A DNA stretch of 64,000 bases from Dipteronia dyeriana (lineage: Eukaryota > Streptophyta > Magnoliopsida > Sapindales > Sapindaceae), in assembly GCA_032871835.1 (NCBI GenBank), contig CM065301.1:34418405-34482404 (forward strand), in the 5' to 3' direction. The position numbers and the translations under genes are program-made. The notes under the pieces were generated by a model that made no database searches, had not been told where the DNA came from, and worked only from the letters and a program-made list of their open reading frames with translations. Shown in pieces: positions 5,626 through 38,631 of this stretch (the first letter of the stretch is position 1; each line of letters begins with the position of its first letter).

Positions 5626-5699
5626 AGCTTCGACCTGTTCATACGGATCCCCTCATGCCTCCGGGTTCGCCCTTCATAAGCTTCTATGTAGCAGTAACA

Positions 5700-8860: not shown

Positions 8861-8925
8861 TTTTCTCCATCCGAAACGTCTACTTCTGGATCAACCGGGG
8901 CTCACCTGCCATATAAACAACCACC

Positions 8926-9828: not shown

Positions 9829-12800
9829 CTGATGCCTCGGCCTGGCACCACCCCCTGCCAAGAAGAGTCTGTGTGTAAGAGCGTAGTTGCCATCCGGATA
9901 AAATTACCATGACATAGCTAGATAGCGCTCCTTATGCCTTGGTCAGGCTACGACCCCCAAGAAAGGTCTTAGTGTAAGAGCATAGTTGCCATCCAGGTCG
10001 AAATAAAAAGATATAGCTAGATAGCTCTTTTGATGCCTTGGTCGAGCTACGACCACCAAGAAGGGTCTGTGTGTAAGAGCATAAATTCCATCTAGTTCGA
10101 AATACCAGGATATAGCTAGATAGCGCTTCCGATGCCTTGGTCGTGCTACGACCCCTAAGAAAGGTCTGAGTGTAAGAGCATATTTGGCATCCGGATGAAA
10201 ATACCATAATATAGCTAGATAGCACTCCTGATGCCTTGGTTGGGCTACGACCCCCAAGAAGGATCCAAGTGTAAGAGCATAGTTGCCATCTGGATCTAAA
10301 TACCAGAATATAGCTAGATAGCTCTCCTGATGCCTTATTCGGGCTACGACCTTTAAGAAGGGTCTGAGTGTAAGAGCATAGTTGCAATCCGAATCAAATT
10401 ATCAGGATATAGCTAGATAGCACTCCTTATGCCTTGGTCAGGCTACGACCCTAAGAAGGGTCTCAGTGTAAGAGCATAGTTGCCATCCAGGTCGAATTAC
10501 TAGGATATAGCTAGATAGCGCTCTTGATGCCTTGGTTGGTCTATGACCCCCTAGAAGGGTCTGAGTGTAGGAGCATAGTTGCCATCCAGATTAAAATACC
10601 ATGATATGGCTAGATAGCGCTTCAAATGCCTTGGTCGGGCTACGACCCCTAAGAAGGATCCAAATGTAGGAGCATAGTTTCCATCCAGATCAAATTACCA
10701 GGATATAGCTAGATAACGCTCCTTATGCCTTGGTTAGGCTACGACCCCCAAGAAGGGTCTTAGTGTAACAGCATATTTGCCATCCAGGTCGAAATACCAG
10801 TATATAGCTAGATAGCTCTACTGATGCCTTGGTCAGGCTAAGACTCGCAAGAAGGGTCTGAGTTTAAGAGCATAGTTGCCATCTCGATCAAAATACCATA
10901 ATATAGCTAGATAGCACTCCTTATACCTTGGTCGGGCAACGACCCTCAAGAAGAGTCTGAGTGTAATAGCATAGTTACCATACGGATCTAAATACCAGGA
11001 TATAGCAAGATAGAGCTCCTAATGCCTTGGTCGGGCTACAACCCCTAATAAGAGTTTTAGTGTAAGAGCATAGTTGCCATCCGGATCAAAATACCAGGAT
11101 ATAGCTATATAGCGCTCCTAATGCCTTGGTCGGCTATGACCCCTAAGAAGGGTCTGAGTGTAAAAGCATAGTTGCCATCCAGATCAAATTACCAGGATAT
11201 AGCTAGATAGCGCTCCTTATGCATTGGTCAGGCTACGACCCCCAAGAAGGGACTCAGTGTAAGAGTATAGTTGCCATCCAGATCAAAATACTAGGAAACA
11301 GCTAGATAGCGCTCCAGATGCCTTGGTCGGGCTACGACCCCCAAGAGGGGTCTGAGTGCAAGAGCATAGATTCCATCAGGATCTAAATACCCGGATGGAG
11401 CTTGATAGGACTTCTGATTCCTTGGTAGATCTAGGACCCCCTAGAAGGGTCTTATTGTAAGAGCATAGTTGCCATCCGAATTAAAATACCACGATATAGC
11501 TAGATAGCGCTCCTGATTCCTTGGTCAGGCTACGACATTCAATAAGGATCCAAGTGTAGAAGCATAGTTACCATCCGGATCAAAATACCAGGATATAGCT
11601 AAATAGCGCTCCTGATGACTTGGTCAGGCTACGACCCTCAATAAGGATCCAAGTGTAGGAGCATAGTTGCCATCCGGATCTAAATACCAGGGTATAGCTA
11701 GATAGCGCTCCTGATGCCTTGGTCAGGCTACGAACCCTAAGAAGGGTCTGAGTGTAAGAGCATAGTTGCCATCTGGATTAAATTACCAGGATATAGCTAG
11801 ATAGCGCTCCTTGTGCCTTGGTCAGGCTACGACCCCAAGAAGGGTCTCAGTGGTAGAGCATAGTTGCCAGCCAGGTCGAAATACTAAGATATAGCTAGAT
11901 AGCGCTCATGATGCCTTGGTTGGTCTACGACCCCCTAGAAGGGTAATTGCCATCCGTATTAAAATACCAGGATATAACTAGATAGCGCTTCTGATGCCTT
12001 GGTCGGGCTACAACCCCTAAAAAAGGGCTAAGTGTAAGAGAATAGTTCCCATCTAGATCAAAATACCAGGATACAGCTACATAGCGTTCCTGATGCCTTG
12101 GTGGGGTACGACCCCCAAGAAAGGTCTGAGTGTAAGAGCGTAGTTGCCATCCGGATCAAAATACCAGGATATAGCTAGATAGCGTTCTCAATGCCTTTGT
12201 CGGGCTACGACCCCCAAGATGGATTCGAGAGTAATAACATAGTTTCCATCCATATCAAAATACTAGGAAAAAGCTAGATAGTGCTCCTGATGCCTTGGTC
12301 AGGCTACGACTCCCAAAAGGGGTCTTATTGCAAGAGCTTAGTTTCCATCCGGATCAAAATACAAGGATAGAGTTAGATATCGCTCCATATGCCTTGGTCA
12401 GTCTATGACACCCTAGAAGGGTCTGACTATAAGAGTATAGTTGCCATCCCTATTAAAATACCAGGATATAGCTAGATATTGCTCCTTATGCCTTGGTCGG
12501 GCTACGACCCCCAATTAGGGTCTAAGTGAAAGAGCATAGTTTCCATCTAGATCGAGATTCCAAGATATAGCTAGATAGCGCTTGATGCTTGGTCGGTCCA
12601 CTATCCCCAAGAAGGATTCGAGTGTAAGAGCATAGTTTCCATCTGGATCAAAATACTATGAAATAGCTAGATAGCGCTCCTGATGCCTTGGTCGGTCTAC
12701 TACTCCCAAGAGGTGTCTGAAAGTAAGAGCATAGTTGACATCTGAATCGAAATACCATGATAGAGCTAGATAGCGCTATTGATGCCTTGGTCAATCTACT

Positions 12801-13739
12801 CTGACTGTAAGAGCATAGATGCCATCCGGATCAAAATACCAGGATATAGCAAGATAGCACTCCTGATGCCTAAGTCGGGCTACGACCCCCAAGAAGGGTC
12901 TGAGTGTAAGAGCAATGTTGCCATCCTGATCAAATTACCTGGATATAGCTAGATAACGCTCTTTATGCCTTTTTTGGGCTACGACACCCAAGAAGGGTCT
13001 AAGTGTAAGAGCATAGTTGCCATCCAGGTCGGAATATCAGGAAAATGCTAGATAGCTCTCCTGATGCCTTGGTTGGGCTATGATCCCCAACAAGGGTCTG
13101 AGTGTAAGAGCTTCGTTTCCATCCGGATCAAAATGCCATGATATAGCTAGATAGCTTTCCTGATGCCTTGGTCAGGCTACAACCCCAAGAAGGGCCTGAG
13201 TGTAAGAGCATAGTTGCCATTCGGATCAAAATACCATAATATAGCAAGATAGTGCTCTTGATGCCTTGGTCGAGCTACGACCCCCAAGAAAGATCCAAGT
13301 GTAAGATCATAGTTGACATCCGGATCAAAATACTAGGATATAGCTAGATAGCGCTCTTGATGCCTTGGTCGGTCTACTACTCTCACGAAGGATTCGAGTG
13401 CAAGAGCATAGTTTCCATCTAGATCAAAATACTAGGAAATAGCTAGATAGCACTCTTGATGCTTTGGTCGGGCTACGACAAAAGAGAGGGGTCTGACTAT
13501 GAGAGCATAGTTGTCATCCAGGTATAAATACCAGGATATAGCTACATAGCTCTCCTGATGCCTTGGCCGGGTTACAACCCCCAAAAAGGGTCTGAGTGTA
13601 AGAGCATAGTTGCCAACCGTATCAAAATACCATGATATAGCTAGATAGCGCTCCTGATGCCTTAGTCAGGTTACGACCCTCAAGGAGGGACTAAGTGTAA
13701 GAGCATCGATGCCATCCAGATCAAAATACCAGGATATAG

Positions 13740-14730
13740 CTAGATAGAGCTTCATATAAGTTGATCGGGCTACTTTTCCCAAGAAGGATCCGTGTGTAAG
13801 AGCGTACTTGCCATCCTGATCAAAATACTAGGATATAGCTAGATAGCGCGCTTGATGCCTTGGTCTGGCTACGACCCTTAAGAGGGGTCTGAGTGTAAGA
13901 ACATAGTTGCCATCTGGATCAAAATACCAAGATATAGCTAGATAGCACTCATGATGCCTTTATCGGTCTACGACCTAGAAGGGTCTGAGTGTAAAAGCAT
14001 AGTTGTCATCCATATTAAAATACCAGGATATAGTTAGATAGCGCTTCTAATGCCTTGGTCGGGCTACGATCCCGAAGAAGGGTCTAAGTGTAAGAGCATA
14101 GTTGCCATCCGGATAAAAATACCATGATATAGCTAGATAGCGCTCATGATGCCTAAGTCAGGCTACGACCCTCAATAAGGGTATGAGTGTAAGAGCATCG
14201 ATGCCATCCGGATCAAAATACCAGGATATAGCTAGATAGCGATTCTGATGCGTTGATCGGGCTACAACCCCTAAGAAGGATCTGTGTGTAAGAGCATACT
14301 TTCCATCCGGATTAAAATTTTAGGATATAGCTAGATAGTGCTCCTGATGCCTTGGTCGGGCTACGACCCTTATGAGGGGTCTGAGTGTAAGAACATAGTT
14401 GCCATCGGGATCAAAATAACAGGATAAAGCTAGATAGCGCTAATGATGCCTTGGTCTGTCTACGACCCCCTAGAAGGGTCTGAGTGTAAAAGCATAGTTG
14501 TCATCCATATTAAAATACCAGGATATAGTTTGTTAGCGCTCCTAATGCCTTGGTCGGGCTACGATCCCGAAGAAGGGTTTAAGTGTAAGAGCATAGTTTC
14601 CATCTAGATCGAAATACAAGGATATAGCTAGATAGCGCTCCTGATGCCATGGTCGGGCTAGGAACCCCAAGAAGGGTCGAGGTGTAAGAGCATAGTTGCC
14701 ATCAGGGTCGAAATACCTGGATATAGCTAG
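13740..14730 (+). repeat. Higher-order repeat: five-monomer unit (495 bp) in two copies
   Basis: The variant run GTTGTCATCCATATTAAAAT is at 14002 and again at 14497, 495 bp apart. The neighbouring GATCGGGCTAC...AAGGATC variants near 13754 and 14248 keep nearly the same spacing. Outer edges are approximate. Confidence 0.65.
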
Positions 14731-15149
14731 ATAGCTCTCCTGATGCCTTGGTTGGTCTACGACCCCCTGGAAGGGTATGAGTGTAAGAGAATAGTTTCCA
14801 TCTAGATTAAATTACCAGGATATAGTTAGATAGCGCTCCTAATGCCTTGGTCGGGCTACGATCCCCAAGAAGGTCTAAGTGTAAGAGCATAGTTGCCATT
14901 TAGATCGAAATACATGGACATTGCTAGATAACGCTCCAGATGCCTAGGTCGGGCTACGATCTCAAGAAGAGTCTAAGTGTAAGAGCATAGTTGCCGTCCA
15001 TATTGAAATACCAGGATATAGATAGATAGTGCTCCTTATGCCTTGGTCTGGCTACGACCCCCAAGAAGGTCTGAGGGTAGGAGCGTAGATGCCATCCGGA
15101 TCAAAATACCATGATATAGATAGATAGAGCTCCTGATGACTTGGTCAGG

Positions 15150-16140
15150 CTACGACCCCTAAAAAGGTTCTAAGTTTAAGAGCACAGTTGCCATCCCGAT
15201 TGAAATACCAGGATGTAGCCAGACAGCGCTCTTGATGCCTTAGTCTTGGAATGACCCCCAAGAAGGGTACGAGTGTAAGAGCAAAGTTGCCATTCGGATC
15301 AAAATATAGGGATATAGCTAGATTGTGCTCTTGATGCCTTGGTAAGGCTACAACTCCCAAGAAGGATCTGAGTGTAAGAGCATAATTGCCATCCGGATAA
15401 AAATACTAGGATATAGCTTTATAACGCTCATGATGCCTTGTTAGGGCTACGAACCCGAAGAGGGGTCTAAGTGTAAGAAAATAGTTGCCATCCGGATCAA
15501 AATACCAGGATATAGCTAGATAGCGCTTCTGATGCCTTGGTCAGGCTACGACCCCTAGGAAGGGTGTGAGTGTAAGAGCATAGTTGCCATCCGGGTCAAA
15601 TTACCAGGATATAGCTAGAAAGAGCTCCTTATGCCTTGGTCTGGCTACGAACCCCAAGAAAGGTCTAAGTGTAAGAGCATAGTTGCCATCCAGGTCGAAA
15701 TACCAGGATATAGCTAGATAGCTCTTCTGATGCCTTGGTCGAGCTACGACCCCCAAGAAGGGTATGAGTGTAAGAGCAAAGTTGCCATTCGGATCAAAAT
15801 ATAGGGATATAGCTAGATAGTGCTCTTGATGCCTTGGTAGGGCTACAACCCCCAAGAAGGATCTGAGTGTAAGAGCATAATTGCCATCCGGATAAAAATA
15901 CTAGGAAATAGCTATATAGCGCTCATGATGCCTTGTTAGGGCTACGACCCCGAAGAGGGGTCTAAGTCTAAGGACATAGTTACCATCCGGATCAAAATAC
16001 CAGGATATAGCTAGATAGCGCTTCTGATGCCTTGGTCAGGCTACGACCCCTAGGAAGGGTCTGAGTGTAAGAGCATAGTTGCCATCCGGGTCAAATTACC
16101 AGGATATAGCTAGAAAGCGCTCCTTATGCCTTGGTCTGGC
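15150..16140 (+). repeat. Higher-order repeat: five-monomer unit (495 bp) in two copies
   Basis: GCAAAGTTGCCATTCGGATC with the rare ATATAGGGATATAG variant occurs at 15281 and 15776. The following monomers (CTTGTTAGGGCTACGA, CCTAGGAAGGGTGTGAG) repeat in the same order, so the unit is exactly five monomers. Confidence 0.75.
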
Positions 16141-19100
16141 TACGACCCCCAAGGAAGGTCTAAGTGTAAGAGCATAGTTGCCATCCAGGTCGAAATACCA
16201 GGATATATCTAGATAGCTCTTCTGATGCCTTGGTCGAGCTACGACCCCTAAGAAGGGTGTGAGTGTAAGAGCATAGTTGCCATCCGGATCAAAATAAAAT
16301 TATATAGCTAGATAGAGCTTCTCATGCCTTGGTTAGGCTACGATCCCCAAAAAGGGTTTAAGTGTAAGAGCATAGTTTCCATCCCGATCGAAATACCAGG
16401 ATATAGCTAGACAGCGCTCCTGATGCCTTGGTCTGGCTACAACCCCTAAGAAGGGTCTGAGTGTAAGAGCAAAGTTGCCATCCAGATCAAAATACCAGTA
16501 TATATAGCTAGATAGTGCTCTTGATGCCTTGGTCAGGCTACGACCCCCAAGAAGGTTCCGAGTGTAAGAGCATAGTTGCCATCTGGATATAAATACTATG
16601 ATATAGCGAGATAGCGCTCCTGATGCCTTGGTCAGGCAACGACACCGAAGAAGGGTCTGACTGTAAGAGCATAGTTGCCATCTGGATTAAAATACCAGGA
16701 TATAGCAAGATAGCGCTTCTGATACGTTTGTTGGGCTACGACCCCCAAGAAGGATCCATGTGTAAGAGCATCCTTGCCATCCTGATTAAAATACTAGGAT
16801 ATTGCTGGATAGCGCTCCTGATGCCTTGGTCGTGCTACGACCCTTATGAGGGGTCTAAGCGTATGAACATAGTTTCCGTCCAGATCAAAATACCAGGATA
16901 TTGCTAAAAAGCGCTTATGATGCCTCTGTCGGTCTACCACCCCCTAGAAAGGTCCGAGTGTAAGAGCATAGTTGCCATCCTCATTATAATACCTGGATAT
17001 AGTTAGATAGAGCTCCTAATGCCTTGGTCGGGCTACAATCCTAAGAAAGGTCTGAGTTTAGGAGCATAGTTGCCATCCGGATCAAAATATCATGATCTAG
17101 CTAGATAGTGCTCTTGATGCCTTGGTCAGGCTACGACATCCAAAACGGGTCTAAGTGTATGAGCATAGTTGCCATCCCGTTTGAAATACCAAGATATAGC
17201 CAGACAGCGCTCTTGATGCCTTGGTCTGGCTACGATCCCCAAAAGATTACGAGTGTAAGAGCAAAGTTGCCATTCGGATCAAAATACAGGGATATTGCTA
17301 GATAGCGCTCTTGATGCCTTAGTCGGGCAACGACCCCTAAGAAGGATCCTAGTGTAAGAGCGGAGTTTCCATCCTAATAAAAATACTGTGATATAGCTAT
17401 ATAGCGCTCCATATGTCTTGGTCAGGCTACGACCCCGAAGAGAGGTTTGAGTGTAAGAACATAGTTGCCATTCGGATCAAAATACCAGGATATATCCAGA
17501 TAGCGCTCCTGATGCCTTGGTCAGGCTACGACCTCTAAGAAGACTCTGAGTGTGTGAGCATAGTTGCCATCCGGATTAAATTACCAGGATATAGCTAGAT
17601 AGCGCTCCTTATGCCTTGGTCGGGCTAAGACTCTCAAGAAGGGTCTATGTGTAAGAGTATAGTTGCCATCCAGGTCAAAATACCAGGATATAGCTAGATA
17701 GCTCTCCTGATGCCTTAATCGGGCTATGACCCAAGAAGGGTCTAAGTGTAATAGCATAGTTGCCATCCGGATCAAAATCCCATGATATAGGCAGATAGAG
17801 CATCTAATGCCTTGGTTAGGCTACGACCCCCAAAAAGGGTCTAAGTGTAAGAGCATAATTGCCGTCCAGATCGAAATACCAGGATACAGCTAGACAGCGC
17901 TCCTGATGCCTTGGTTTGGCTACGACAACCAAGAAGGGTCTGAGTGTAAGAGAAAAGTTGTCATTCGGATCAAAATACTAGTTTATAGCTAGATAGTGCT
18001 CTTGATGCCTTGGTCAGGTTACGACCCCCAAAAAGGTTACGAGTGTAAGAGCATAGTTGCCATTTGGATAAAATACTAGGATATAGCTAGATAGAACTCT
18101 ATATGCCTTGGTCAGGCTACGACCCCCAAGAAGGGTCTAACCGTAAGAGCATAATTTCCATCCAGATCAAAATACCAGGATACAGCTAGATAGCGTTGCT
18201 GATGCCTTGGCCTGGCTACGACCCCTAAGATGGGTCTGAGTGTACGAGCGTAGTTTCCATCCGGATCAAATTACCAGGACATAGCTAGATAGCGCTCATT
18301 ATGCCTTGGTTGGGCTACGACCTCTAAAATGGGTCTAAGTGTAAGAGCATAATTTCCATCCATATCGAAAGACCAGGATATAGCTATATAGCGCTCCTAA
18401 TTCCATGGTCGGGCTACGACCCTAAAGAAGGGTCTGAGTGTAAGAGCATAGTTTCCATTCGGATCAAAATACTAGGATATATCTAGATAGTTCTCTTGAT
18501 GCATTGGTTGGGCTACGACCCCCAAAAGGATCAGAGTGTAAGAGCATAGTTATCATCCGGATCAAAATACTAGGATATAGCTAGATAGCGCTCCTGATGC
18601 CTTGGGCAGGCTACGACCCACAAGAATGGTCTATGTGTAAGAGCATTGTTGCCATTCGGATCAAAATACCAGGATATAACTATATAGCGCTCCTGATGCC
18701 TTGGTCCGGCTACTACTAACAAGAAGAGTCTGAGTGTAAGAGCATAGTTGCCATCCGGATCAAAATACCAGTATATAGCTAGATAGTACACTTGATGCCT
18801 TGGTCAGGCTACGGCCCTCAAGAAGGTTCTGAGTGTAAGAGCATAGTTGCCATCCGGATAAAAATACTAGGATATAGCGAGATAGCACTCCTGTTGCCTT
18901 GGTCAGGCAACGACACTCAAGAAGGGTCTGACTGTAAAAGCATAGTTGCCATCCGGATTAAAAAAACCAGGATATAGCTAGATAGCGCTTCTGATGCGTT
19001 TGTTGGGCTACGACACCCAAGAAGGATCTATGTGTAAAAGCATACTTGCCATCCGGATCAAAATAGTAGGATATAGTTGGATAGCGCTCCTGATGCCTTG

Positions 19101-22100
19101 GTCGGGCTACGACCCTTAAGAAAGGTCTGAGTGTATGAACATAGTTGCCATCCGGATCAAAATACCAAGATATTGCAAGATAGCGCTTATGATGCCTCTG
19201 TCGGTCTACGACCTCCTAGAAAGGTCTGAGTGTAAAGGCATAGTTGCCATCCAGACTATAATACCATGATATAGTTAGATAGCTTTCCTAATGCATTAGT
19301 CGGGCTACGATCCCAAGAAAGGTCTGAGTTTAGGAGCATAGTTGCCATCCGGATCAAAATACCATGATATAGCTAGATAGAGCTAATAATGCCTTGGTCA
19401 GGCTACGACATCCAAAAAGGGTCTAAGTGTAAGAGCATAAGTGCCATCCCGATCGAAATACCAGGATTTAGCCAGACAACGCTCTTGATGCCTTGGTCTG
19501 GCTACAACCACCAAGAAGGGTACGAGCGTAAGAGCAATGTTACCATTCAGATCAAAATACAAGGATATAGCTAGAAAGTGCTCTTGATGCCTTGGTCGGG
19601 CTACGACCCCCAAGAAGGATCCTAGTGTAAGAGCATAGTTGTCATCCTAATAAAAATACTATGATATAGCTATATAGCGCTCCTGATGTCTTGGTCGGGC
19701 TACGACTCCGAAGAGAGGTCTGAGTGTAAGAACATAGTTGCCATCCGGATCAAAATACCAGGATATATCTAGATAGCGCTCCTGATGCTTTGGTCAGGCT
19801 ACGACCCATAGAAGACTATGAGTGTATGAGCATAGTTGCCATCCGGATCAAATTACCAGGATATAGGTAAATAGCGCTCTTTATGCCTTGGTCGGGCTAT
19901 GACTCCCAAGAAGGGTCTAAGTGTAAGAGTATAGTTGCCATCCATGTCGAAATACCAGGATATAGCTAGATAGCTCTCTTGATGCCTTGGTCGGGCTACG
20001 ACCCCCAAGAAGGGTCTGAGTGTAATAGCATAGTTGCCATCCGGATCAAAATACCATGATATAGCTAGAAAGAGCTTTTAATGCCTTGGTCAGGCTACGA
20101 CCCCCAAAAAGGGTCTAAGTGTAAGAGCATAGTTGCCAACCCGATCGAAATACCAGGATATAGCTAGACAGCGCTCCTAATGCCTTGGTTTGGCTACGAC
20201 CCCCAAGAAGGGTCTGAATGTAAGAGAAAAGTTGCCATTCGGATCAAAATACCAGGATATAGCTAGATAGTTCTCTTGATGCCTTGGTCAGGTTACGACC
20301 CCCAAAAAGGTTCTGAGTGTAAGAGCATAGTTGCCATCTGGATAAAATACTAGGATATAGCTAGATAGCACTCCTGATGCCTTGGTCGGGCTACGACCCC
20401 CAAGAAGGATCCGAGTGTAAGAGCATAGTTGCCATCCTAATTAAAAATACTATGATATAGCTATATAGCGCTCCTGATGTCTTGGTCGGGCTACAACCCT
20501 GAAGAGAGGTCTGAGTGTAAGAACATATTTACCATCCGGATTAAAATACCACGATATATCTAGATAGCGCTCCTAATGCCTTGGTCAGGCTACGACCCCT
20601 AAGAAGACTCTGAGTGTGTGAGCATAGTTGCCGTCCGTATCAAATTACCAGGATATAGCTAGATAGCGCTCCTTATGCCTTGGTCGGGCTATGACACCCA
20701 AGAAGGGTCTAAGTGTAAGAGCATAGTTACCATCCAGGTCGAAATACTAGGATATAGCTAGATAGCTCTCTTGATGCCTTGGTCAGGCTACGACCCCCAA
20801 GAAGGGTCTGAGTTTAATAGCATAGTTGCCATCCGGATCAAAATACCATGATATAGCTAGATAGAGCTTCTAATGCCTTGGTCAGGCTACGACCCCCAAA
20901 AAGGGTCTAAGTGTAAGAGCATAGTTGCCATCCCGATCGAAATACCAGGATACAGCTAGACAGCGCTCATGATGCCTTGGTTTGGCTACGACCCCCAAGA
21001 AGGGTGTGAGTGTAGAAGAAAAGTTGCCATTCGGATCAAAATACCAGGATATAGCTAGATAGTTCTCTTGATGCCTTAGTCAGGTTACGACCCCCAAAAA
21101 GGTTCCGAGTGTAAGAGCATAGTTGCCATCTGGATAAAATACTAGGATATAGCTAGATAGCACTCTTGATGCCTTGGTCAGACTACGACCCCCAAGAAGA
21201 GTTTGACTGTAAGAGCATAGTTGCCATCCGGATCAAAATACCAGGATATAGCTAGATAGCGCTCTAGATGCCTTGGTCGGGCTACGACCCCCAAGAAGGG
21301 TCTGACTGTACGAGCGTAGTTTCCACCCAGATCAAATTACCAGGACATAGCTAGATAGCGCTCCCTATGGCTTAGTCAGGCTATGACCCCCCAAAAGGGT
21401 CTAAGTGTAAGAGCATAGTTGCCATCCATATCGAAAGACCAGGATATAGCTAAATAGCGCTCGTAATGCCTTGGTCAGGCTACGACCCCCAAGTAGGGTC
21501 TGAGTGTAAGAGCATAGTTGCCATTCGGATCAAAATACCAGGATATAGCTAGATAGTTCTCTTGATGCCTTGGTCGGGCTACGACCCCCAAAAGGATCCC
21601 AGTGAAAGAGCATAGTTATCATCCGGATCAAAATACTAGGATATAGCTAGATAGCGCTCATGATGCCTTAGTCGGGCAACGACCCCCATGAAGGGTATGA
21701 GTGTAAGAGCATAGTTGCCATTCTGATCAAAATACAAGGATATAACTATATAGAGCTCCTGATGCCTTGGTCGGGATACTACCCCCAAGAAGGGTCTGAG
21801 TGTAAGAGCATAGTTGCCATTCGGATCAAAATACCAGGATATAGCTAGATAGTGCTCTTGATGCCTTGGTCTGTCTACGACCCCAAAGAAGGATTCGAGT
21901 GTAAGAGCATGGTTTCCATCCGGATCAAAATACTAAGAAATAGCTAGATAGCGCTCATGATGCCTTGTTCGGGCTACGACCCCCAACAGAGGTCTGAATG
22001 TAAGAGCATAGTTTCCATCCGGATCAAAATACCAGGATAGAGCTAAATAGCACTACTGATGCCTTGGTCGGTATACGACCCTCAAGAAGGGTATGAGTGT

Positions 22101-23410: not shown

Positions 23411-26400
23411 ATTACCAGGATATAGCTAGATAGCGCTCCTTATGCCTTGGTCGGGCTATGACTCCCAAGAAGGGTCAAAGTGTAAGAGTATAATTGCCAT
23501 CCAGGTCGAAATACCAGGATATAGCTAGATAGCTCTCCTGATGCCTTGGTCGGGCTACGACCCAAGAAGGGTCTGAGTGTAATAGCATAGTTGCCATCCG
23601 GATCAAAATCCCATGATATAGCTAGATAGAGCTTCTAATGCCTTGGTTAGGCTACGATCCTCAAAAAGGGTCTAAGTGTAAGAACATAGTTGCCATCCTG
23701 ATCGAAATACCAGGATATAGCTAAACAGCGCTCCTGATGCCTTGGTTTGGCAACGACACCCAAGAAGGGTCTGAGTGTAAGAGAAAAGTTGCCATTCGGA
23801 TCAAAATACCAGGATATAGCTAGATAGTGCTCTTGATGCCTTGGTCAAGTTACGACCCCCAAAAAGGTTCCGAGTGTTAGATCATAGTTGCCATCTTGAT
23901 AAAAAACTAGGATATAGCTAGATAGCACTCCTGATGCCTTGGTTAGGCTACGACCCCCAAGAAGGGTCTGACTGTAACAGCATAGTTGCCATAAGGTTCA
24001 AAATACCAGGATATAGCTAGATAGCGCTCATGATGCCTTGGTAGACACCCAAGAAGGGTCTGAGTGTACGAGCGTAGTTTCCCTCCGGATCAAATTACCA
24101 GGACATAGATAGATAGCGCTTCTTATGCTTTGGTCGGGCTACGACCCCCAAAAAGGGTCTAAGTGTAAGAGCATAGTTGCCATCCATATCGAAAGACCAG
24201 GATATAGCTATATAGCGCTTCTAATGCCTTGGTCGGGATACGACCCCCAAGAAGGGTCTGAGTGTAAGAGGATAGTTGCCATTCGGATCAAAATACCAGG
24301 ATATAGCTAGATAGCTCTCCAGATGCCTTGATCGGGCTTCGACCCCCAAGAAGATTCTGAGTGTAAGAGGATAGTTGCCATTCGGATCAAAATACCAGGA
24401 TATAGCTAGATAGTGCTCTTGATGCCTTAGTCCGGCTATGACCCCCAAAAGGATCCGAGTATAAGAGCATAGTTGCCATCTGGATCAAAATACTAGGATA
24501 TAGCTAGATAGCACTCCTGATGCCTTGGTCAGGCTACGACCCCCATGAAGGGTCTGAGTGTAAAAGCATAGTTGCCATTCAGATCAAAATACAAGAATAT
24601 AACTTTATAACACTCATGATGCCTTGGTCAGGCTACTACCCCAAGAAGGGTCTGAGTGTAAGAGCATAGTTGCCATTCGGATAAAAATACCAGGATATAG
24701 CGAGATAGTACTCTTGATGCGTTTGTCTGTCTACGACCCCCAAGAAGGATTCGAGTGTAAGAGCATAGTTTACATCCGGATAAAAATACTAAGAAATAGC
24801 TAGATAGCGCTCCTAATTCCTTGTTTGGGCTACGACCCCCAAGAGAGGTCTGAATGTAAGAGCATAGTTGCCATCCGGATCAAATCACCAGGATAGAGCT
24901 AGATAGCGCTACTGATGCCTTGGTCGGTCTACGACCCTCAAGAAACGTCTGAGTGTAAGAGCATAGTTGCCATCCGGATTAAATTACCAGGATATAGCTA
25001 GAAAGCGCTCATTATGCCTTGGTCTGGCTATGACTCCCAAGAAAGGTCTAAGTGTAAGAGTATAATTGCCATCCAGGTCGAAATACCAGGAAATAGCTAG
25101 ATAGCTCACCTGATGCCTTTGTCGGGCTACGACCCAAGAAAGGTCTGAGTGTAATAGCATAGTTGCCATCCGGATCAAAATCCCATGATATAGCTAGATA
25201 GAGCTTCTAATTCCTTGGTTAGGCTACGACCCCCAAAAAGGGTCTAAGTGTAAGAGCATAGTTGCCATCTTGATCGAAATACCAGGATATAGCTAGACAG
25301 CGCTCCTGATGCCTTGGTTTGGCAACGACACTCAAGAAGGGTCTGAGTGTAAGAGAAAAGTTGCAATTCGGATCAAAATACCAGGATATAGCTAGATAGT
25401 GCTCTTGATGCCTTGGTCAAGTTACGACCCCCAAGAAGGTTCTGAGTGTTAAAGCATAGTTGCCATCTGGATAAAATACTAGGATATAGCTAGATAGCAC
25501 TCCTAATGCCTTGGTTAGGCTACGACCCCCAAGAAGGGTCTGACTATAACAACATAGTTGCTATCCGGATCAAAATACCAGGATAAAGCTTGATAGCGCT
25601 CCTGATGCCTTGGTAGACACCCAAGAAGGTTCTGAGTGTACGAGCATAGTTTCCCTCCGGATTAAATTACCAGAACATAGCTAGATAGCGCTTCTTATGC
25701 CTTGGTTGGGCTACGACCCCCAAAAAGGGTCTAAGTGTAAGAGCATAGTTGCCATCCATATCGAAAGACCAGGATATAGCTATATAGCGCTTCTAATGCC
25801 TTGGTCGGGATACGACCCCCAAGAAGGGTCTGAGTGTAAGAGGATAGTTGCCATTCGGATCAAAATACCAAGATATAGCTAGATAGCTCTCCAGATGCCT
25901 TGGTCGGGCTTCGACCCCCAAGAAGAGTCCGAGTGTAAGAGGATAGTTGCCATTCGGATCAAAATACCAGGATATTGCTAGATAGTGCTCTTGATGCCTT
26001 AGTCCGGCTATGACCCCCAAATGGATCCGAGTGTAAGAGCATAGTTGCCATCCGGATCAAAATACTAGGATATAGCTAGATAGCACTCCTGATGCCTTGG
26101 TCAGGCTACGACCCCTAAGAAGGGTCTGAGTGTAAAAGCATAGTTGCCATTCGGATCAAAATACCAGGATATAATTTTATAACACTCATGATGCCTTGGT
26201 CAGGCTACTACCCCAAGAAGGGTCTGAGTGTAAGAGAATAGTTGCCATTCGGATAAAAATACCAGCATATAGCGAGATAGTGCTCTTGATGCCATGGTCT
26301 GTCTACGACCCCCAAGAAGGATTCGAGTGTAAGAGCATAGTTTACATCCGGATCAAAATACTAGGAATTAGCTAGATAGCGCTCCTGATGCCTTGTTTAG

Positions 26401-26554
26401 GCTACGACCGCCAAGAGAGATCTGAATGTAAGAGCATAGTTGCCATCCGGATCAAATCACCAGGATAGAGCTAGATAGCGCTACTGATGCCTTGGTCAGT
26501 CTACGACCCTCAAAAAGGGTCTGAGTGTAAGAGCATAGTTGCCATCCGGATTAA
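23411..26554 (+). repeat. Higher-order repeat: 1572-bp unit in two tandem copies
   Basis: Rare variants recur at a constant 1572-bp offset: GAAAGACCAGGATATAGC with the following GTAAGAGGATAGTT (24125-24448 against 25697-26020), the shortened TTGGTAGACACCCAAGAAGG monomer, and CAAATCACCAGGATAGAGC. Similarity is high but not complete. Related single-copy runs begin near 17581, 19850 and 20640, so the same multi-monomer pattern has been copied more than once. Confidence 0.8.
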
Positions 26555-28077
26555 ATAACCAGGATATAGCTAGATAGCGCTCCTAATGCCTTGTTCGGGC
26601 TACGACCCCCAAGAAGGATCCGAGTGTAGAAGCATAGTTTCCATCCGGATCAAAATACCAGGATATAGCATATAGCACTCCTGATGCCTAAGTTGGGCTA
26701 CGACCCCAAAGAAGGGTCTGAGTGTAAGAACATAGTTGCCATCCGGATCAAAATACCATGATATAGCTAGATAGCGCTCCTGATGCCTTGGTCAGGTTAC
26801 GACCCTCAAGAAGGGTCTAAGTGTAAAAGCATAGTTGCTATCCAGATCAAAATACCAGGATATAGCTAGATAGCGCTTCTAATGCGTTGGTCGGGCTATA
26901 ACCCCCATGAAGGATCCATGTGTAAGAGCATAGTTGCCATACGGATAAAAATACTAGGATATAGCTATATAGCGCTCCTGATGCCTTGGTCGGCTACGAC
27001 CCCCAAGAGGAGTCTAAGTGTAAGAACATAGTTGCCATCCGGATCAAAATACCAGGATACTGCTAGATAGCGCTTAAGACGCCTTGGTCTGTCTACGGCC
27101 CCCTAGATGGGTCTGAGTGTAAGAGCATTGTTGCCATCCGCATTAAAATACTAGGATATACTTAGATAGCGCTCCTAATGCATTGGTCGGGCTACGATCC
27201 CCAAGAAGGGTCTAAGTGTAAGAGCATAGTTGCCATCTAGATCGAAATACCAGGATATAGCTAGATAGCGCTCCTGATGCCTTGGTCAGGCTACGACCCC
27301 AAAAAGAGTCTAATTGTAAGTGCATAGTAGCCATCCAGAACGAAATACCAGGATATAGCTAAATAGTGCTCCTGATGACTTGGTCTTTCTACGACCCACA
27401 AGAAGGGTCTAAGTGTAAGAGCATAGTTGCCATCAGGATCAAAATACCAGGATATAGCCAGACAGCGATCTTGATGCCTTGGTCTGGCTATGACCACTAA
27501 GAAGAGTTCGAATGTAAGAGCAAAGTTGCCATTCGGATCAAAATACATGGATATAGTTAGATAGTTCTCTTTATGCCTTGGTCGGGCTACGACCCCCAAG
27601 AAGGATCCTAGTGTAAGAGCATAGTTACTGTCCTAATAAAAATACAAGGACATAGCTATATAGCGCTCCTGATGTCTTGGTCGGGCTATGACCCCGAAGA
27701 TAGGTCTGAGTGTAAGAACCTAGTTTCCATCCGGATCAAAATACCAGGATATAGCCAGATAGCGCTCCTGATGCCTTGGTCAGGCTACGACCCCTAAGAA
27801 GAGTCTGAGTGTATGAGCATAGTTGCCTTTTGGATCAAATTACCAGGATATAGCTAGATAGTGCTCCTTATGCCTTGCTCGGGCTACGACCCCTAAGAAT
27901 GATCCAAGTGTAAGAGCATGGTTACCATCCGGATCAAAATACCAAGATATAGCTAGATAGAGCTCCTAATGCCTCGGTCGGTCTACGACCCCCTATAAGG
28001 GTTTGAGTGTAAGAGCATAGTTGCCATCCGGATTAATATACCAGGATATAGCTAGATAGCGCTCTTGATGCCTTGGT

Positions 28078-31000
28078 CAGGCTATGACCCCAAGAAGGAC
28101 CCGAGTGTAAGAGCATTGTTGCCATCTAAAACAAAATACTAGGATATAGCTAGATAGCGCTCATAATGCCTTGGTCAGGCTGCGTCCCCCAAGAAGGGTC
28201 TGAGTGTAATAGCATAGTTGCCAACAAGATCAAAATAACAGGACAAAGCTAGATAGCGCTCCTGATGCCTTTCTAGATAGCGTTATTAGTGCCTTAGTCA
28301 AGCTTTGATCCCTAAAAAAGGGCCAAAGTGTAAGAGCATAGTTGCCATCTAGATCAAAATACCAGGATATAGCTAGATAGTGCTTCTGATGCCTTGGTTG
28401 GTCTATGACCCCCAATAAGGGTTTGAGAGTAAGTGCATAGTTGCCATCCAGATTAAAAGACCAGGATATGGCTAGATAGCGCTCTTGATGCCTTGGTCGG
28501 GCTACGACCCCTAAGAAAGACCTGAGTGTAGAATCGTAGTTTCCATCCGGATCAAAATACCAGGATATAGCAGATAGCCCTCCTAATGCTTAAGTCGAGC
28601 TACGACCCCCAATAAGGGTTTGAGTGTAAGAGCATAGTTGCCATCCAGATCAAAATACCATGATATAGCTAGATAGCTTCCCTGATGCCTTGGTCAGGCT
28701 AAGACCGTCAAGAAGGGTCTGAGTGTAAGAGCATAGTTGCCATCCGGATCATAATACCAGGATACCGCGAGATGGCGCTTTTGATGCATTGGTCGGTCTA
28801 CGGCCCCATAGAAGGGTCTAATTGTAAGAGCATTGTTGCCATCCGCATTAAAATACAAGGATATTGTTAGATAGCGCTCCTAATACATTGGTCCGGCTAC
28901 GATCCCTAAGAAGGGTCTAAGTGTAAAAGCATAGTTGCCATCTAGATCGAAATACCAGGATATAGCTAGATAGCGCTCTTGATGCCTTGGTCAGGTTACG
29001 ACCCCAAAAAGAGTCAAAGTGTAAGAGCATAGTCGCCATCCAGAATGAAATGCCAGGATATAGCTAGGTAGTGCTCCTAATGCCTTGGTCTTGCTACGAC
29101 CCCCAAGAAGGGTCTGAGTGTAAGAGCATAGTTGCCATCAGGATCAAAATACCAGGATATAGCCAGACAACGCTCTTGATGACTTGGTCTGGCTATGACC
29201 CCCAAGAAGGGTACGAGTGTAAGAGCAAAGTTGCCATTCGGATCAAAATACAGGGATATAGCTAGATAGTGCTCTTGATGCCTTGGTCGGGCTACGACCC
29301 CAAAGAAGGATCCGAGTGTAAGAGCATAGGTGCCATCCTAAAACAATACTAGGATATAGCTAGATAGCACTCCTGATGTTTTGGTCGTGCTACGACCCCG
29401 AAGAGAGGTCTGAGTGTAAGAACATAGTTTCCATCAGGATCAAATTACCAAGATATAGCTAGATAGCGCTCCCGATGCCTTGGTCAGGCTACGACCCCTA
29501 AGAAGAGTCTGAGTGTATGAGAGTAGTTGCAATCCGGATCAAATTACCAAGATATAGCTAGATAGTGCTCCTTATGCCTTGCTCAGGCTATGACCCCAAG
29601 AAGGACCCGAGTGTAAGAGCATTGTTGCCATCTAAAACAAAATACTAGGATATAGCTAGATAGCGCTCATAATGCCTTGGTCAGGCTGCGTCCCCCAAGA
29701 AGGGTCTGAGTGTAATAGCATAGTTGCCAACAAGATCAAAATAACAGGACAAAGCTAGATAGCGCTCCTGATGCCTTTCTAGATAGCGTTATTAGTGCCT
29801 TAGTCAAGCTTTGATCCCTAAAAAAGGGCCAAAGTGTAAGAGCATAGTTGCCATCTAGATCAAAATACCAGGATATAGCTAGATAGTGCTTCTGATGCCT
29901 TGGTTGTCTATGACCCCCAATAAGGGTTTGAGAGTAAGAGCATAGTTGCCATCCAGATTAAAAGACCAGGATATGGCTAGATAGCGCTCTTGATGCCTTG
30001 GTCGGGCTACGACCCCTAAGAAAGACCTGAGTGTAGAATCGTAGTTTCCATCCGGATCAAAATACCAGGATATAGCAGATAGCCCTCCTAATGCTTAAGT
30101 CGAGCTACGACCCCCAATAAGGGTTTGAGTGTAAGAGCATAGTTGCCATCCAGATCAAAATACCATGATATAGCTAGATAGCGTCCCTAATGCCTTGGTC
30201 AGGCTAAGACCGTCAAGAAGGGTCTGAGTGTAAGAGCATAGTTGCCATCCGGATCATAATACCAGGATACCGCGAGATGGCGCTTTTGATGCATTGGTCG
30301 GTCTACGGCCCCATAGAAGGGTCTAATTGTAAGAGCATTGTTGCCATCCGCATTAAAATACAAGGATATTGTTAGATAGCGCTCCTAATACATTGGTCCG
30401 GCTACGATCCCTAAGAAGGGTCTAAGTGTAAAAGCATAGTTGCCATCTAGATCGAAATACCAGGATATAGCTAGATAGCGCTCCTGATGCCTTGGTCAGG
30501 TTACGACCCCAAAAAGAGTCAAAGTGTAAGAGCATAGTCGCCATCCAGAATGAAATGCCAGGATATAGCTAGGTAGTGCTCTTAATGCCTTGGTCTTGCT
30601 ACGACCCCCAAGAAGGGTCTGAGTGTAAGAGCATAGTTGCCATCAGGATCAAAATACCAGGATATAGCCAGACAACGCTCTTGATGACTTGGTCTGGCTA
30701 TGACCCCCAAGAAGGGTACGAGTGTAAGAGCAAAGTTGCCATTCGGATCAAAATACAGGGATATAGCTAGATAGTGCTCTTGATGCCTTGGTCGGGCTAC
30801 GACCCCAAAGAAGGATCCGAGTGTAAGAGCATAGGTGCCATCCTAAAAAAATACTAGGATATAGCTAGATATCACTCCTGATGTTTTGGTCGGGCTACGA
30901 CCCCGAAGAGAGGTCTGAGTGTAAGAACATAGTTTCCATCAGGATCAAATTACCAAGATATAGCTAGATAGCGCTCCCGATGCCTTGGTCAGGCTACGAC

Positions 31001-31095
31001 CCCTAAGAAGAGTCTGAGTGTATGAGAGTAGTTGCAATCCGGATCAAATTACCAAGATATAGCTAGATAGTGCTCCTTATGCCTTGCTCAGGCTT
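28078..31095 (+). repeat. Higher-order repeat: 1505-bp unit in two nearly identical copies
   Basis: GCTATGACCCCAAGAAGGAC at 28081 returns at 29587. The next 1.5 kb match almost base for base, including the odd GATGCCTTTCTAGATAGCG short monomer and the TCTAAAACAAAATACTAGG variant. Only scattered differences are visible (for example CTTCCCTGATG against CGTCCCTAATG, and one missing G near 29905). This is much closer than the match between neighbouring monomers, so it is the most recent duplication seen in the array. Confidence 0.9.
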
Positions 31096-33363
31096 TGACC
31101 CCCAAGAAGGATCGGAGTGTAAGAGCACAGTTGCCATCCGGATCAAAATACCAGGATATAGCTAGATAGAGCTCCTGATGCCTCGGTCGGTCCCCTTATA
31201 AGGGTTTGAGTGTACGAGCATAGTTGCCCTTCGGATTAAAATACCAGGATATAGCTAGATAGCGCTATTAATGGCTTGGTCGGGCTACGACCCCCAAGAA
31301 GGACCTGAGTGTAAGAGCATAGTTGCCATCTGGATAAAAATACCAGGATATAGCTAGATAGCGCTCCTAATGCCTTGGTCGGGCTACGACCCCCAATAAG
31401 GGTATGAGTGTAATAGCATAGTTGCCAACCAAATCAAAATAACAGGACAAAGCTAGATAGCGCTCTAGATGGCTTTCTAGATAGCGTTCCTGATGCCTTG
31501 GTCAGGCTTTGACCCTCAAAAATACCAGGATATAGCTAGATAGAGCTCCTGATGCCTTGGTCGGTCTACGACCCCCTATAAGGGTTTGAGTGTAAGAGCA
31601 TAGTTGCCATCCAGATTAAAATACCAGGATATAGCTAGATAGCGCTCTTGATGCCTTGATCGAGCTACGACCCCTAAGAAGGACCTGAGTGGAGAAGCGT
31701 ACTTTCCATCCGGATCAAAATACCAGGATATAGCAGATGGCACTCCTGATGCCTAAGTCGGGCTATGACCACCAAGAAGGATCCATGTGTAAGAGCATAG
31801 TTGCCATCCGGATCAAAATACCATGATATAGCTAGATAGCGCTCATGATGCCTTGGTCAGGCTACGACCCTCAAGAAGGACCCGAGTGTAAGAGCATAGT
31901 TTCCATTTGAATCAAAATACCAAGATACAACTAGATAGCGATCCTAATGCCTTGGTCGGGCTACGACCAGCAAGAAGGGTCTGAGTGTAAGAGCATAGTT
32001 GCCAACCGGATCAAAATAATAGGACATAGCTAGATAGCTCTCCTGATGCCTTTCTAGATAGCGCTTCCAATGCCTTGGTCTGGCTACGACCCCCAAAAAA
32101 GGTCTAAGAGTAAAAGCATAGTTTCCATACAGATCAAAATACCAGGATATAGCTAGATAGCGCTCCCGATGCCTTGGGCGGGCTACGACACCCAAGAAAG
32201 GTCAGAGTGTAAGAGCATAGTTGCCAATCGGATCAAAATAAAAGGATATAGCTAGATGGCGCTCTTAATGCCTTTGTCGGCCTATGACCCCCATGAGAGA
32301 TCCGAGTGTAAGAGCGTAGTTGCCATCCGGATCAAAATACAAGGATTTAGCAAGATAACGCTCCAGATGACTTGGTCTGGCTATGACCCCCAAGAGGGGG
32401 CTGAGTGTAAGAGCATAGTTTCCATCCGGATCAAAATATCAGGATATAGTTAGATAGAGATCATGATTCCTTGGTCAGGATACGACCCCTAAAAAGGGTT
32501 TAAGTGTAGGTGCATAGTTTCCATTCATATCGAAATACCGGGATATAATTATATAGCGCTTCTGATGCCTTGGTCGGGCTACGACCCTTTTGGAGGACCC
32601 CCAAAAGGGTCTGAGTGTAAGTGCAAAGTTGCCATTCGGATTAAAATACCAATATATAGCCAGATAGTTTTTTTGATGCCTTGGTCGGGCTACGACCCCC
32701 AAGAAGGATCCGAATGTAAGAGCATAGTTGCCATCCGGATAAAAATACATGGATATAGCTAGATAGCGCTCCTAATGCCTTGGTCAGGCTACGAACCCCA
32801 AGAAGGGTCTGATTGTAAGAGTATAGTTGCCATCCGGATCAAAATACCATGATATAGCTAGATAGCGCTCCTGATGCCTTGGTCAGGCTACGACCCCCAA
32901 GAAGGGTCTGAGTGTACGAGCGTAGTTGCCATCCGGATCAAATTACCAAGATATAGCTAGATAGCGCTTCTTTTGCATTGGTCGGGCTACGATCCTCAAA
33001 AAGGGTCTAAGTGTTAGAGCATAGTTGCCATTTAGGTCGAAATACCATGGTATAGCTAGATAGCTCTCCTGATGCATTGGTCGGGCTACTACCCCTTAGT
33101 AGGGTCTGAGTGTAAGAGCATAGTTGCCATCCGAATCAAAATACCATAACATAGCTAGATAGCACTTCTGATGCCTTGGTCATGCTACGATCTTAAAGAA
33201 GGGTCTGAGTGTAAGAGCATAGTAGCCATCTGGATCAAAATACCAGGATATAGCTAGATAGCGCTCTTGATGCCTTTGTCGGGCTACGACCCCAAGAAGG
33301 ATACGTGTGTAAGAGCACAATTGCCATCCGGATCAAAATACTAGGATATAGCTAGATAACGCT

Positions 33364-35101
33364 TACACCCCCAAGAAAGTTCTAAGTGTAAGAGCATAGT
33401 TGCCATCCGGATTAAATTACAAGGATATAGCTAGATAGCTCTGTTGATGTCTTGGTCGGGCAACAACCCCAAAGAAGGGTCAAAGTGTAAGAGCATAGTT
33501 GCCTTCTAGATCGAAATACCTGAATATAGATAGATAGCGCTCTTGATGCCTTGGTCGGGCTACGACCCCCAAGTAGGGTCTGAGTTTCAGAAAATGGTTG
33601 CCATCCGGGTCAAAATACCATGATATTGCTAGATAGTGCTCCTGATGCCTTGGTCAGGCTACGACCCCCAAAAAGGGTCTAAGTGTAAGAGCATAGTTGC
33701 CATCTAGATCGAAATACCAGGATATAGCTATATAGCGCTCCTCATGCCTTGGTAGGGCTACTACCCCCAAGAAAGGTGTGAGTGTAAGAGCATAGTTGCC
33801 ATTCGGATCAAAATACCAAATTATAGCTAGATAGTGCTCTTGATGCCATGGTCGGGCTACGACCCCCAAAAGGATCCAAGTTTACGAGAATAGTTGCCAT
33901 CCGGATAAAAATACTAGGATATAGCTAGATAGCGCTCTTGATGCCTTGGTCGGTCTACGACCCCAAATAAGGATTTGAGTGTAAGAGCATAGTTTCCATT
34001 CGGACCAAAATTCTAGGAAATAGCTGGATAGCGCTCCTGATGCCTCGTTCATGCTACGACCCCCATGAGAGGTCTGAATGTAAAAGCATAGTTGCCATCT
34101 GGCTCAAAATACCAGGATGTAGCTAGATAGTGCTCCTGATGCCTTGGTCGGGCTACGACTCCCAAAAGGATCCGAGTGTAAGAGCATAGTTGCCATATGG
34201 ATCAAAATACTAGTATATAGCTAGATAACGCTTAGCCCCTCAAGAAAGTTCTAAGTGTAAGAGCATAGTTGCCATCCGGATTAAATTATAAGGATATAGC
34301 TAGATAGCTCTCTTGATGCCTTGGTCGGGCAACAACCCCAAAGAAGGGTCAAAGTGTAAGAGCATAGTTGCCATCTAGATCGAAATACCTGAATATAGAT
34401 AGATAGCGCTCTTGATGCCTTGGTCGAGCTACGACCCCCAAGTAGGGTCTGAGTTTCAGAAAATGGTTGCCATCCGGGTCAAAATACCATGATATTGCTA
34501 GATAGAGCTCCTGATTCCTTGGTCAGGCTACGACCCCCAAAAAGGGTCTAAGTGTAAGAGCATAGTTGCCATCCAGATTGAAATACCAGTATATAGCTAT
34601 ATAGCGCTCCTCATGCCTTGGTCGGGCTACTACCCCCAAGAAGGGTGTGAGTGTAAGAGCATAGTTACCATTCGGATCAAAATACCAAGATATAGCTAGA
34701 TATTGCTCTTGATGCCATGGTCGGGCTACGACCCCCAAAAGGATCCAAGTGTACGAGCATAGTTGTCATCCGGATAAAAATACTAGGATATAGCTAGATA
34801 GCGCTCTTGATGCCTTGGTCGGTCTACGACCCCCAAGAAGGATTCAAGTGTAAGAGCATAGTTTCCATTCGGACCAAAATTCTAGGAAATAGCTGGATAG
34901 CGCTCCTGATGCCTCGTTCGTGCTACGACCCCCAAGAGAGGTCTGAATGTAAAAGCATAGTTGCCATCCGGCTCAAAATACCAAGATATAGCTAGATAGT
35001 GCTCTTGATGCCTTGGTCGGGCTACGACTCCCAAAAGGATCCGAGTGTAAGAGCATAGTTGCCATATGGATCAAAATACTAGGATATAGCTAGATAGCGC
35101 T
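33364..35101 (+). repeat. Higher-order repeat: 869-bp unit in two tandem copies
   Basis: AAGAAAGTTCTAAGTGTAAG occurs at 33373 and 34242. Both copies start with a monomer lacking the GATGCCTTGGTCGGG part, which explains why the offset is 22 bp short of nine monomers. Later shared variants are GGGCAACAACCCCAAAGAAG, the TTTCAGAAAATGG run, and CCTCGTTC(A/G)TGCTACG. Confidence 0.8.
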
Positions 35102-35655
35102 CTTCATGCCTTGGTCGGTCTACGACCCCATGACGGATTCGAGTGTAAGAGCATAGTTTCCATCCGGATCAAAATACTAGGAAATAGCTAGATAGCGCTC
35201 TTGATGCCTTGTTCGGGCAACGACCCCTAAGAGAGGTCTAAATGTAAGAGCATAGTTGCCATCCGGATCAAAATGCCAGGATTGAGCCAGATAATGCTAT
35301 TGATTCCTTGGTCGGGCTACGACCCTCAAGAAGGGTCTGAGTGTAAGAGCATAATTGCCATCCGGATTAAAATACAAGGATATAACTAGATTGTGCTCAT
35401 GATGCCTTGGTCTGGCTACGACCCCCAAGAAGGGTCTAAGTGTAAGAGCATAATTGCCATCCAGATCGAAATACCTCGATATAGCTAGATAGCGCTCCTG
35501 ATGCCTTAGTCGAGCTACGACCCCAAGAAGGGTATGAGTGTAAGAGCATAGTTTCCATCCGGATCAAAATACCATGATATAGCTAAACAACGCTTTTGAT
35601 GCCTTGGTCGGGCTACGACCCCCAATAAGGATTCGAGTGTAAGAGCATAGTTTCC

Positions 35656-37537: not shown

Positions 37538-37544
37538 CCTTGTC

Positions 37545-38605: not shown

Positions 38606-38631
38606 AATGTAAAAAGAGAGTGGTGTAAAAG

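What the first reader, a model, noticed from the sequence alone, without database searches (positions are those of the whole stretch)
9829..35655. A 25.8 kb satellite array sits inside one LTR retrotransposon
About 260 copies of a 99-bp monomer lie between the leader and the 3' UTR/polypurine tract/3' LTR of element A1, all in element orientation. Seen directly: the period, the flanking LTR parts, and the same order (repeats, 3' UTR, LTR) in A2 at 60280-64000. Known: in legume Ogre elements, tandem repeats of the 3' region have given rise to free satellites (PisTR-A). Here the array is far longer than any plausible mobile element cargo yet still framed by element parts, so it looks like a satellite caught during or after amplification in place.
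Basis: partly seen in the sequence, partly recalled or inferred. Interest (0 to 1): 0.9.

Follow-up and report, generated by a model that had tools for sequence, protein, structure and literature searches.

The report
Retrotransposon-embedded satellite array in plant
A 26 kb stretch of about 260 copies of a 99-base repeat sits inside an old plant retrotransposon and owes about half of its copies to duplication of its own blocks; this is a clear new case of a route to satellite DNA that is already known from other plants.

Summary
About 262 monomers (modal length 99 bp, mean identity to consensus 0.889) fill 9858-35652 in one orientation, between LTR-PBS-leader (4045-9857) and 3'UTR-LTR start (35653-37152) of one element type, A1. 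The same order recurs in A2 (minus strand, 64000 to 58637).

New here: E2 (46539-58636, minus), a decayed gag-pol-bearing Tat-clade Ty3/gypsy element, carries 4.2 copies of the same monomer shortly after pol, so its kind is the likely source. A1 shows no clear gag or pol and looks like a non-autonomous relative.

The array is not one fresh burst. Monomers differ by about 18.5% whatever their distance, but on that background lie 18 significant collinear block pairs (5-20 monomers, identity 0.870 to 0.993), not all independent, five of them head-to-tail. They link 262 monomers into 118 groups; A2 shares none. Stepwise growth in place by unequal exchange is the best reading.

The kind is published: Ogre-derived arrays in Lathyrus sativus reach 174 kb (Vondrak et al.). 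Untested: A1's insertion age (its two LTR pieces do not overlap) and the rest of the genome (the search tool did not complete).

The parts
1..1565 (+). Ty1/copia element, end of internal region (RT; further ORF pieces assigned by eye), inserted in A1's 5' LTR
   Evidence: Pfam RVT_2 E 6.6e-47 for 1-489; ORF pieces
1566..4044 (+). Ty1/copia 3' LTR (about 2.5 kb), ends where A1's 5' LTR was interrupted
   Evidence: start TGTGAGG at 1566, end ...CCCTACA at 4044, read by eye; A1/A2 homology begins at 4045
4045..4902 (+). A1 5' LTR, 3' part only
   Evidence: matches A2's LTR: 4045-4258 p 0.20, 4351-4905 p 0.30; terminus TTAACA
4903..9857 (+). A1 PBS (4908) and long leader with its own diverged internal repeats; 9758-9820 resembles E2's UTR before its repeats
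   Evidence: PBS; leader homology to 45967-44724(-) and self-repeats; left-junction alignment; 4 of 4 ORF pieces scanned without a Pfam match above cut-off
9858..35652 (+). 99-bp satellite array, about 262 monomers, with 18 significant collinear block pairs
28090..31101 (+). youngest detected in-array duplication: 15 monomers copied head to tail, shift 1506 bp, identity 0.993
   Evidence: seen at DNA level
35653..36088 (+). A1 3' UTR with PPT-like stretch
   Evidence: alignment to A2; last ~50 bp also match E2 (36036-36133 vs 47698-47600, 76%)
36089..37152 (+). A1 3' LTR, first ~1.06 kb, cut by a junction to element B
   Evidence: start TGTTAATAGC; p-distance 0.154 to A2's LTR
37153..39744 (-). 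element B: fragment of an E2-like element, LTR 38657-39744 and gag side of the internal region
   Evidence: DNA homology to E2, PBS-like TGGCGCC at 38651; its two ORF pieces scanned gave no Pfam hit
40430..44694 (+). element C: E2-like fragment from LTR end to RT and RNase H
   Evidence: RVT_1 E 8.7e-19, RT_RNaseH E 2.9e-16, homology to E2
44724..45966 (-). A-type PBS and leader following A2's LTR (one LTR shared by two A-type units), broken at 44724
   Evidence: homology to A1 leader, PBS-like site at 45961
46539..58636 (-). E2: decayed Tat-clade element with gag, RNase H, second RNase H, integrase; LTRs 57531-58636 and 46539-47644; TSD TGTGT; nested in A2's LTR
   Evidence: above Pfam cut-off: Retrotrans_gag, RT_RNaseH_2, RVT_3, Integrase_H2C2; rve below cut-off; RT by homology to element C, its own RT piece 54462-54767 had no Pfam hit; TSD; LTR p-distance 0.110
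51009..51426 (-). E2's short array, 4.2 copies of the same 99-bp monomer, about 210 bp after the last pol-like ORF piece (51638-51898, no Pfam hit, assigned by position)
   Evidence: consensus differs from A1's at 8 of 99 positions
58637..60280 (-). A2 LTR, 5' part (continues at 46538-45967 beyond E2)
60647..64000 (-). A2 array, 35 pieces (33 full), runs off the window end

Best explanation
The array is a satellite grown out of the short tandem repeats that Tat-clade LTR retrotransposons carry downstream of pol. A non-autonomous A-type element (LTR, PBS, long leader, 99-bp repeats, short 3'UTR, LTR; no clear gag or pol) inserted here with an array of unknown, probably shorter, length. Shown: framing by element parts; block duplications inside the array. 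Inferred: that unequal exchange between misaligned arrays added blocks of 5-20 monomers in place over a long time; that methylation-driven C to T decay diverged the monomers meanwhile; that E2-like elements supplied the enzymes in trans (from shared LTR ends, PBS and PPT region).
For: Same order in both A copies. The same monomer stands as 4.2 copies after pol of E2. A1's monomer consensus differs from A2's at 3 and from E2's at 8 of 99 positions. 18 collinear block pairs exceed the 99% level of the maxima of 100 monomer-order shuffles; five are head-to-tail (lag 15, n 15, identity 0.993; lag 16, n 17, 0.948; lag 9, n 10, 0.957; lag 8, n 8, 0.947; lag 5, n 5, 0.966); linked through them, 262 monomers fall into 118 groups. 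At DNA level 3 repeats of 1.0-2.3 kb, against a longest of 357 bp in 20 shuffled orders. No multi-monomer block shared with A2's 35 pieces. CpG and CHG sites mutate most, mainly C to T / G to A.
Against: A1's insertion cannot be dated, so block duplications could predate it. A1-A2 divergence is uneven: 0.154, 0.20 and 0.30 along the LTR, while E2's LTR pair is fairly even (0.138, 0.094, 0.102, 0.105 by quarter), so A1 or A2 may be a mosaic. Monomers within A1 (0.185) are not closer to each other than the A1 and A2 LTR starts (0.154), so founding monomers may be older than the insertion. The 18 pairs are not 18 events: several lags are sums of others. Two of them (scores 0.33, 0.32) barely pass the threshold 0.306. 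The left-junction match to E2 is modest (2 of 1000 shuffles as high). E2's 3' region does not match A1's UTR beyond chance except for the last ~50 bp.
Confidence: 0.75

Rival explanations
1. Cargo: the long array was already present in the RNA and was copied in at insertion; little happened afterwards.
For: Mean monomer difference within A1 (0.185, 6000 sampled pairs) and A2 (0.202) nearly equals that between them (0.203, 6000 sampled pairs) and is not below the A1-A2 LTR-start distance of 0.154, so many monomers may predate the A1-A2 split. E2's four full monomers (0.133, 6 pairs) are about as diverged as its LTRs (0.110).
Against: Block duplications of graded age, one at 0.993 identity, and no block shared with A2. 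A1's internal region would be about 31 kb, against 7.4-12.9 kb in the Retand clusters of Vicient 2025, Table 1.
Confidence: 0.13
2. Independent satellite locus into or beside which element pieces fell; the framing is coincidental.
For: The region is a dense nest of broken elements; A1's left and right parts cannot be paired by LTR identity; A1-A2 divergence is uneven.
Against: Order, orientation and right flank recur in A2, and E2 carries the same monomer inside an element with a 5-bp TSD.
Confidence: 0.08
3. Assembly artefact: the length or the youngest duplication is wrong.
For: A 1.5 kb duplication at 0.993 identity could be a misjoin; no reads were available.
Against: Monomers differ by about 18.5% on average, and of all monomer pairs in A1 only 49 are at least 95% identical, so long reads should place them.
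Confidence: 0.04

Closest known systems
Ogre-derived satellites of Lathyrus sativus, nine families such as FabTR-51, -52 and -54 (Vondrak et al., PMC7004042; abstract, sections 6, 7 and Discussion read)
   Same: Short tandem arrays downstream of gag-pol in Ogre elements that in some copies expanded (FabTR-51 from under 5 to 174 kb); for FabTR-54 and -57 many arrays lie in non-autonomous elements lacking pol.
   Different: Here one array is resolved base by base with its block duplications, in an unnamed plant; the carrier shows no clear gag either. Monomer sequences were not compared with the FabTR families.
Retand elements with tandem arrays between pol and 3' LTR (Vicient 2025, PMC11963269; abstract and part 1 of section 11 read)
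   Same: E2's size (LTR about 1.1 kb, internal about 9.9 kb), repeats after pol, long 3' region.
   Different: No Transposase_28 domain was found in E2's 3' region; A1's internal region is about 31 kb against at most 12.9 kb in their Table 1.
Satellites from the hypervariable 3' UTR of plant LTR retrotransposons (Macas et al. 2009; seen only as a reference and as cited by Vondrak et al.; PisTR-A is named in the finding, in no call of mine)
   Same: Proposed origin of satellites from 3' UTR tandem repeats.
   Different: Not compared in sequence.

Membership tests
Tat clade of plant Ty3/gypsy (E2) | second RNase H (aRH); in angiosperm Ogre and Retand between RH and INT (Neumann et al. 2019, PMC6317226, passages seen) | tested here: met
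   on the minus strand in order: RT_RNaseH_2 at 53653-53904, RVT_3 at 53063-53482, Integrase_H2C2 at 52394-52876, each above its Pfam cut-off. That RVT_3 is the aRH is inferred from its position.
Retand subclade (E2) | antisense ORF with Transposase_28 (PF04195) downstream of pol | tested here: not met
   8 of 8 plus-strand ORF pieces of 80 aa or more between 47818 and 50245 gave no PF04195 hit up to E 5; shorter pieces were not scanned, the region is decayed, and Neumann et al. find the domain in only 23% of Retand. E2 is therefore not filed as Retand.
Retand or Ogre subclade (E2) | RT/RH/INT phylogeny | not tested
LTR retrotransposon (A1) | two matching LTRs, PBS, PPT, TSD | tested here: inconclusive
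   PBS-like site, PPT-like stretch and LTR termini present, but the two LTR pieces do not overlap and no TSD can be read
Satellite derived from Tat-clade tandem repeats | same monomer as a short array inside an element and as an expanded array | tested here: met
   4.2 copies in E2, about 262 in A1
Satellite derived from Tat-clade tandem repeats | genome-wide arrays and their chromosomal location | not testable with these tools
   The genome search did not complete in 10 of 10 calls

The most novel reading that the evidence does not exclude
The A-type elements are a non-autonomous family whose main content is the satellite itself: long arrays are copied through RNA, inserted at new sites by E2-like enzymes, and then grow by unequal exchange, so that satellite loci spread by retrotransposition of whole arrays and not only by local growth.
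Probability: 0.12. Interest if true: 0.65.

Novelty: new member of a known kind. Interest (0 to 1): 0.36.

Why it matters
It is a well-resolved intermediate between a short repeat in a mobile element and a satellite. A gag-pol-bearing relative with 4 copies, an expanded copy with about 262, and a partly readable set of block duplications stand in one 64-kb stretch. In a full assembly the growth steps could be counted and dated against LTRs.

Tried and rejected
Star-like burst: monomer identity does not fall with distance (overall mean 0.814, lag 1 mean 0.809, shuffled order 0.814 with sd 0.0014), which first suggested a single rapid amplification. After correcting for each monomer's own divergence, collinear block duplications appeared, so that reading was dropped for the array as a whole. 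How many monomers count as lying in a later copy depends on the window used: 62, 133, 195 and 234 of 262 for windows of 3, 5, 10 and 20 monomers; the block method gives 118 linked groups, which may be somewhat too low. The variance of pairwise differences also exceeds the column-shuffled expectation (16.7 against 13.2 with 43 of 250 monomers in the largest duplications left out; 0 of 100 shuffles as high).

Dating amplification against insertion by monomer and LTR distances was not decisive.

A repeat-encoded protein: 99 is a multiple of three and one of six frames of the consensus is open, but that frame has more stops than a neutral simulation (202 observed, 144 expected, sd 9). Against this, plus frame 1 shows more synonymous changes than simulated (587 against 516, sd 20); it has a stop in the consensus, and site-specific rates are not modelled, so I do not take it as coding. 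PF18429 (DUF5609) matches E2's repeat ORF just above its cut-off (26.3 against 25 bits); I take it as chance on repeats.

gag or pol remains in A1's leader: no blastn match. tblastx listed a few short weak ones near pol regions (for example 8849-8947 to 52555-52653, 30% over 33 residues, whose output was cut); I do not count them, but cannot exclude an old remnant.

E2's ORF piece 48208-48582 (+) and the leader's 8929-9252 (-) found no homologue at E 0.001 (7 and 2 candidates). A 21-base monomer core had no match in viral contigs or genome contigs (the tool says that records near the window's own genome may be left out).
Full report
What is there. The window is, by its elements, plant DNA made of nested LTR retrotransposons. 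The array at 9858-35652 is real: Tandem Repeats Finder reports it, lag 99 is the best or joint best autocorrelation lag in 13 of 13 2-kb windows over it, and a wrap-around alignment divides it into about 262 monomers, 250 of which pass a filter for gaps and inserts. Mean identity to consensus of the 249 full pieces is 0.889.

Framing. On the left, in order: a Ty1/copia element whose LTR ends at 4044, the last 858 bases of an LTR (4045-4902), a PBS-like site at 4908 and a leader of about 5 kb. On the right: a 436-base UTR with a PPT-like stretch, then an LTR start at 36089 running to 37152, where it is cut by a junction to another element. A2 repeats the order on the minus strand: array, UTR, LTR from 60280. 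A2's LTR is split by E2, which has the 5-base duplication TGTGT on both sides. Beyond E2 the LTR resumes to 45967 and is followed by a PBS-like site and an A-type leader, so one LTR is shared by two A-type units; recombination between LTRs of two elements is a published way to such units (review PMC12628747, passage seen). A1's own two LTR pieces share no sequence, so that they belong to one insertion is inferred from order and orientation.

The source of the monomer. E2 (46539-58636, minus strand) has gag, RNase H, a second RNase H and integrase zinc-binding matches above the Pfam cut-offs; its integrase core match is below cut-off, and its RT is assigned by homology to element C, whose RT matches Pfam. 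Its reading frames are broken, so it is decayed. Two RNase H domains with the second before integrase mark the Tat clade, Ogre or Retand in angiosperms (Neumann et al. 2019, PMC6317226, passages seen). E2 has 4.2 copies of the same 99-base monomer about 210 bases after its last pol-like ORF piece. Its consensus differs from A1's at 8 of 99 positions; A2's differs from A1's at 3. The left edge of the A1 array resembles E2's left edge (score 62, above 500 of 500 shuffles; with monomer sequence excluded, 2 of 1000 shuffles reach the score). A1 and E2 share the LTR-end-to-PBS stretch (4817-4936 vs 57615-57495, 79%) and the PPT-LTR start (36036-36133 vs 47698-47600, 76%). No clear gag or pol match was found in A1's leader, so A1 is most simply a non-autonomous relative.

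How the array grew. Pairwise identity of monomers is 0.81 on average and does not fall with distance. After removing each monomer's own divergence, 18 collinear block pairs exceed the 99% level of the maxima of 100 order shuffles. They hold 5-20 monomers and have identities from 0.870 to 0.993. Five are head-to-tail duplications (lags 15, 16, 9, 8, 5); others are copies of copies, since lags such as 59 = 23 + 36 and 75 = 59 + 16 add up, so the number of separate events is smaller than 18. Linking monomers through them leaves 118 groups of 262. Three are seen again by blastn as repeats of 1.0, 2.2 and 2.3 kb, against a longest match of 357 bases in 20 shuffled orders. The 35 pieces of A2 share no multi-monomer block with A1 and have none of their own above the 95% level of 200 shuffles; A2's visible part is short, so this test is weaker for it. 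Substitutions concentrate at CpG and CHG sites and are mainly C to T and G to A, as methylated heterochromatin would give. I conclude that the array grew stepwise by unequal exchange within this locus or its direct ancestor, long after the founding monomers formed, with the latest detected step recent.

What remains open. Mean differences within A1 (0.185), within A2 (0.202) and between them (0.203), set against LTR distances of 0.154, 0.20 and 0.30 for three parts of the LTR, do not fix whether the founding array came in as cargo. E2's LTR pair is fairly even along its length (0.094-0.138 by quarter), so the unevenness between A1 and A2 may reflect mosaic descent. The source genome could not be searched: the genome search gave no answer in ten calls.

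Comparison with what is known. Vondrak et al. (PMC7004042; abstract, sections 6, 7 and Discussion read) showed that nine of eleven major satellites of Lathyrus sativus come from short arrays downstream of gag-pol in Ogre elements, with lengths from under 5 to 174 kb for FabTR-51, and for FabTR-54 and -57 often in elements lacking pol. Vicient 2025 (PMC11963269; abstract and section 11 part 1 read) found tandem arrays in about half of likely recently active Retand elements; internal regions in Table 1 are 7.4-12.9 kb. The present array is therefore a new member of a known kind: long for an element (internal region about 31 kb), but not for such a satellite. Three word searches of the open library did not look for this monomer's sequence, so I claim nothing about whether the monomer itself is in print.

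Noticed in passing
44696-44726 and 41067-41097: At the junction between element C's RNase H and the A-type leader there is a 31-base perfect inverted copy of sequence 3.6 kb away, suggesting a templated repair event.
   Followed up: no
45967-46538 and 58637-60280: One A-type LTR (split by E2) is followed by a PBS-like site and leader and preceded by array and UTR, so two A-type units share one LTR.
   Followed up: partly
5740-8827: The A-type leader holds its own diverged repeated modules, some shared with 44724-45652; stretches of 6796-7418 recur in 7808-8827 at 64-68% identity.
   Followed up: partly
2624-3337 and 39744-40420: A copia LTR stretch recurs inverted next to element B's LTR (85% identity), so B appears to have inserted in a copia LTR of the same family.
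   Followed up: no
28189-28312, 29695-29818, 31970-32092: Three monomers carry 24-25 bases of internal insertion; the first two correspond through the 15-monomer duplication.
   Followed up: partly
8929-9252: A 108-residue open frame on the minus strand of the A1 leader without Pfam or database match.
   Followed up: yes
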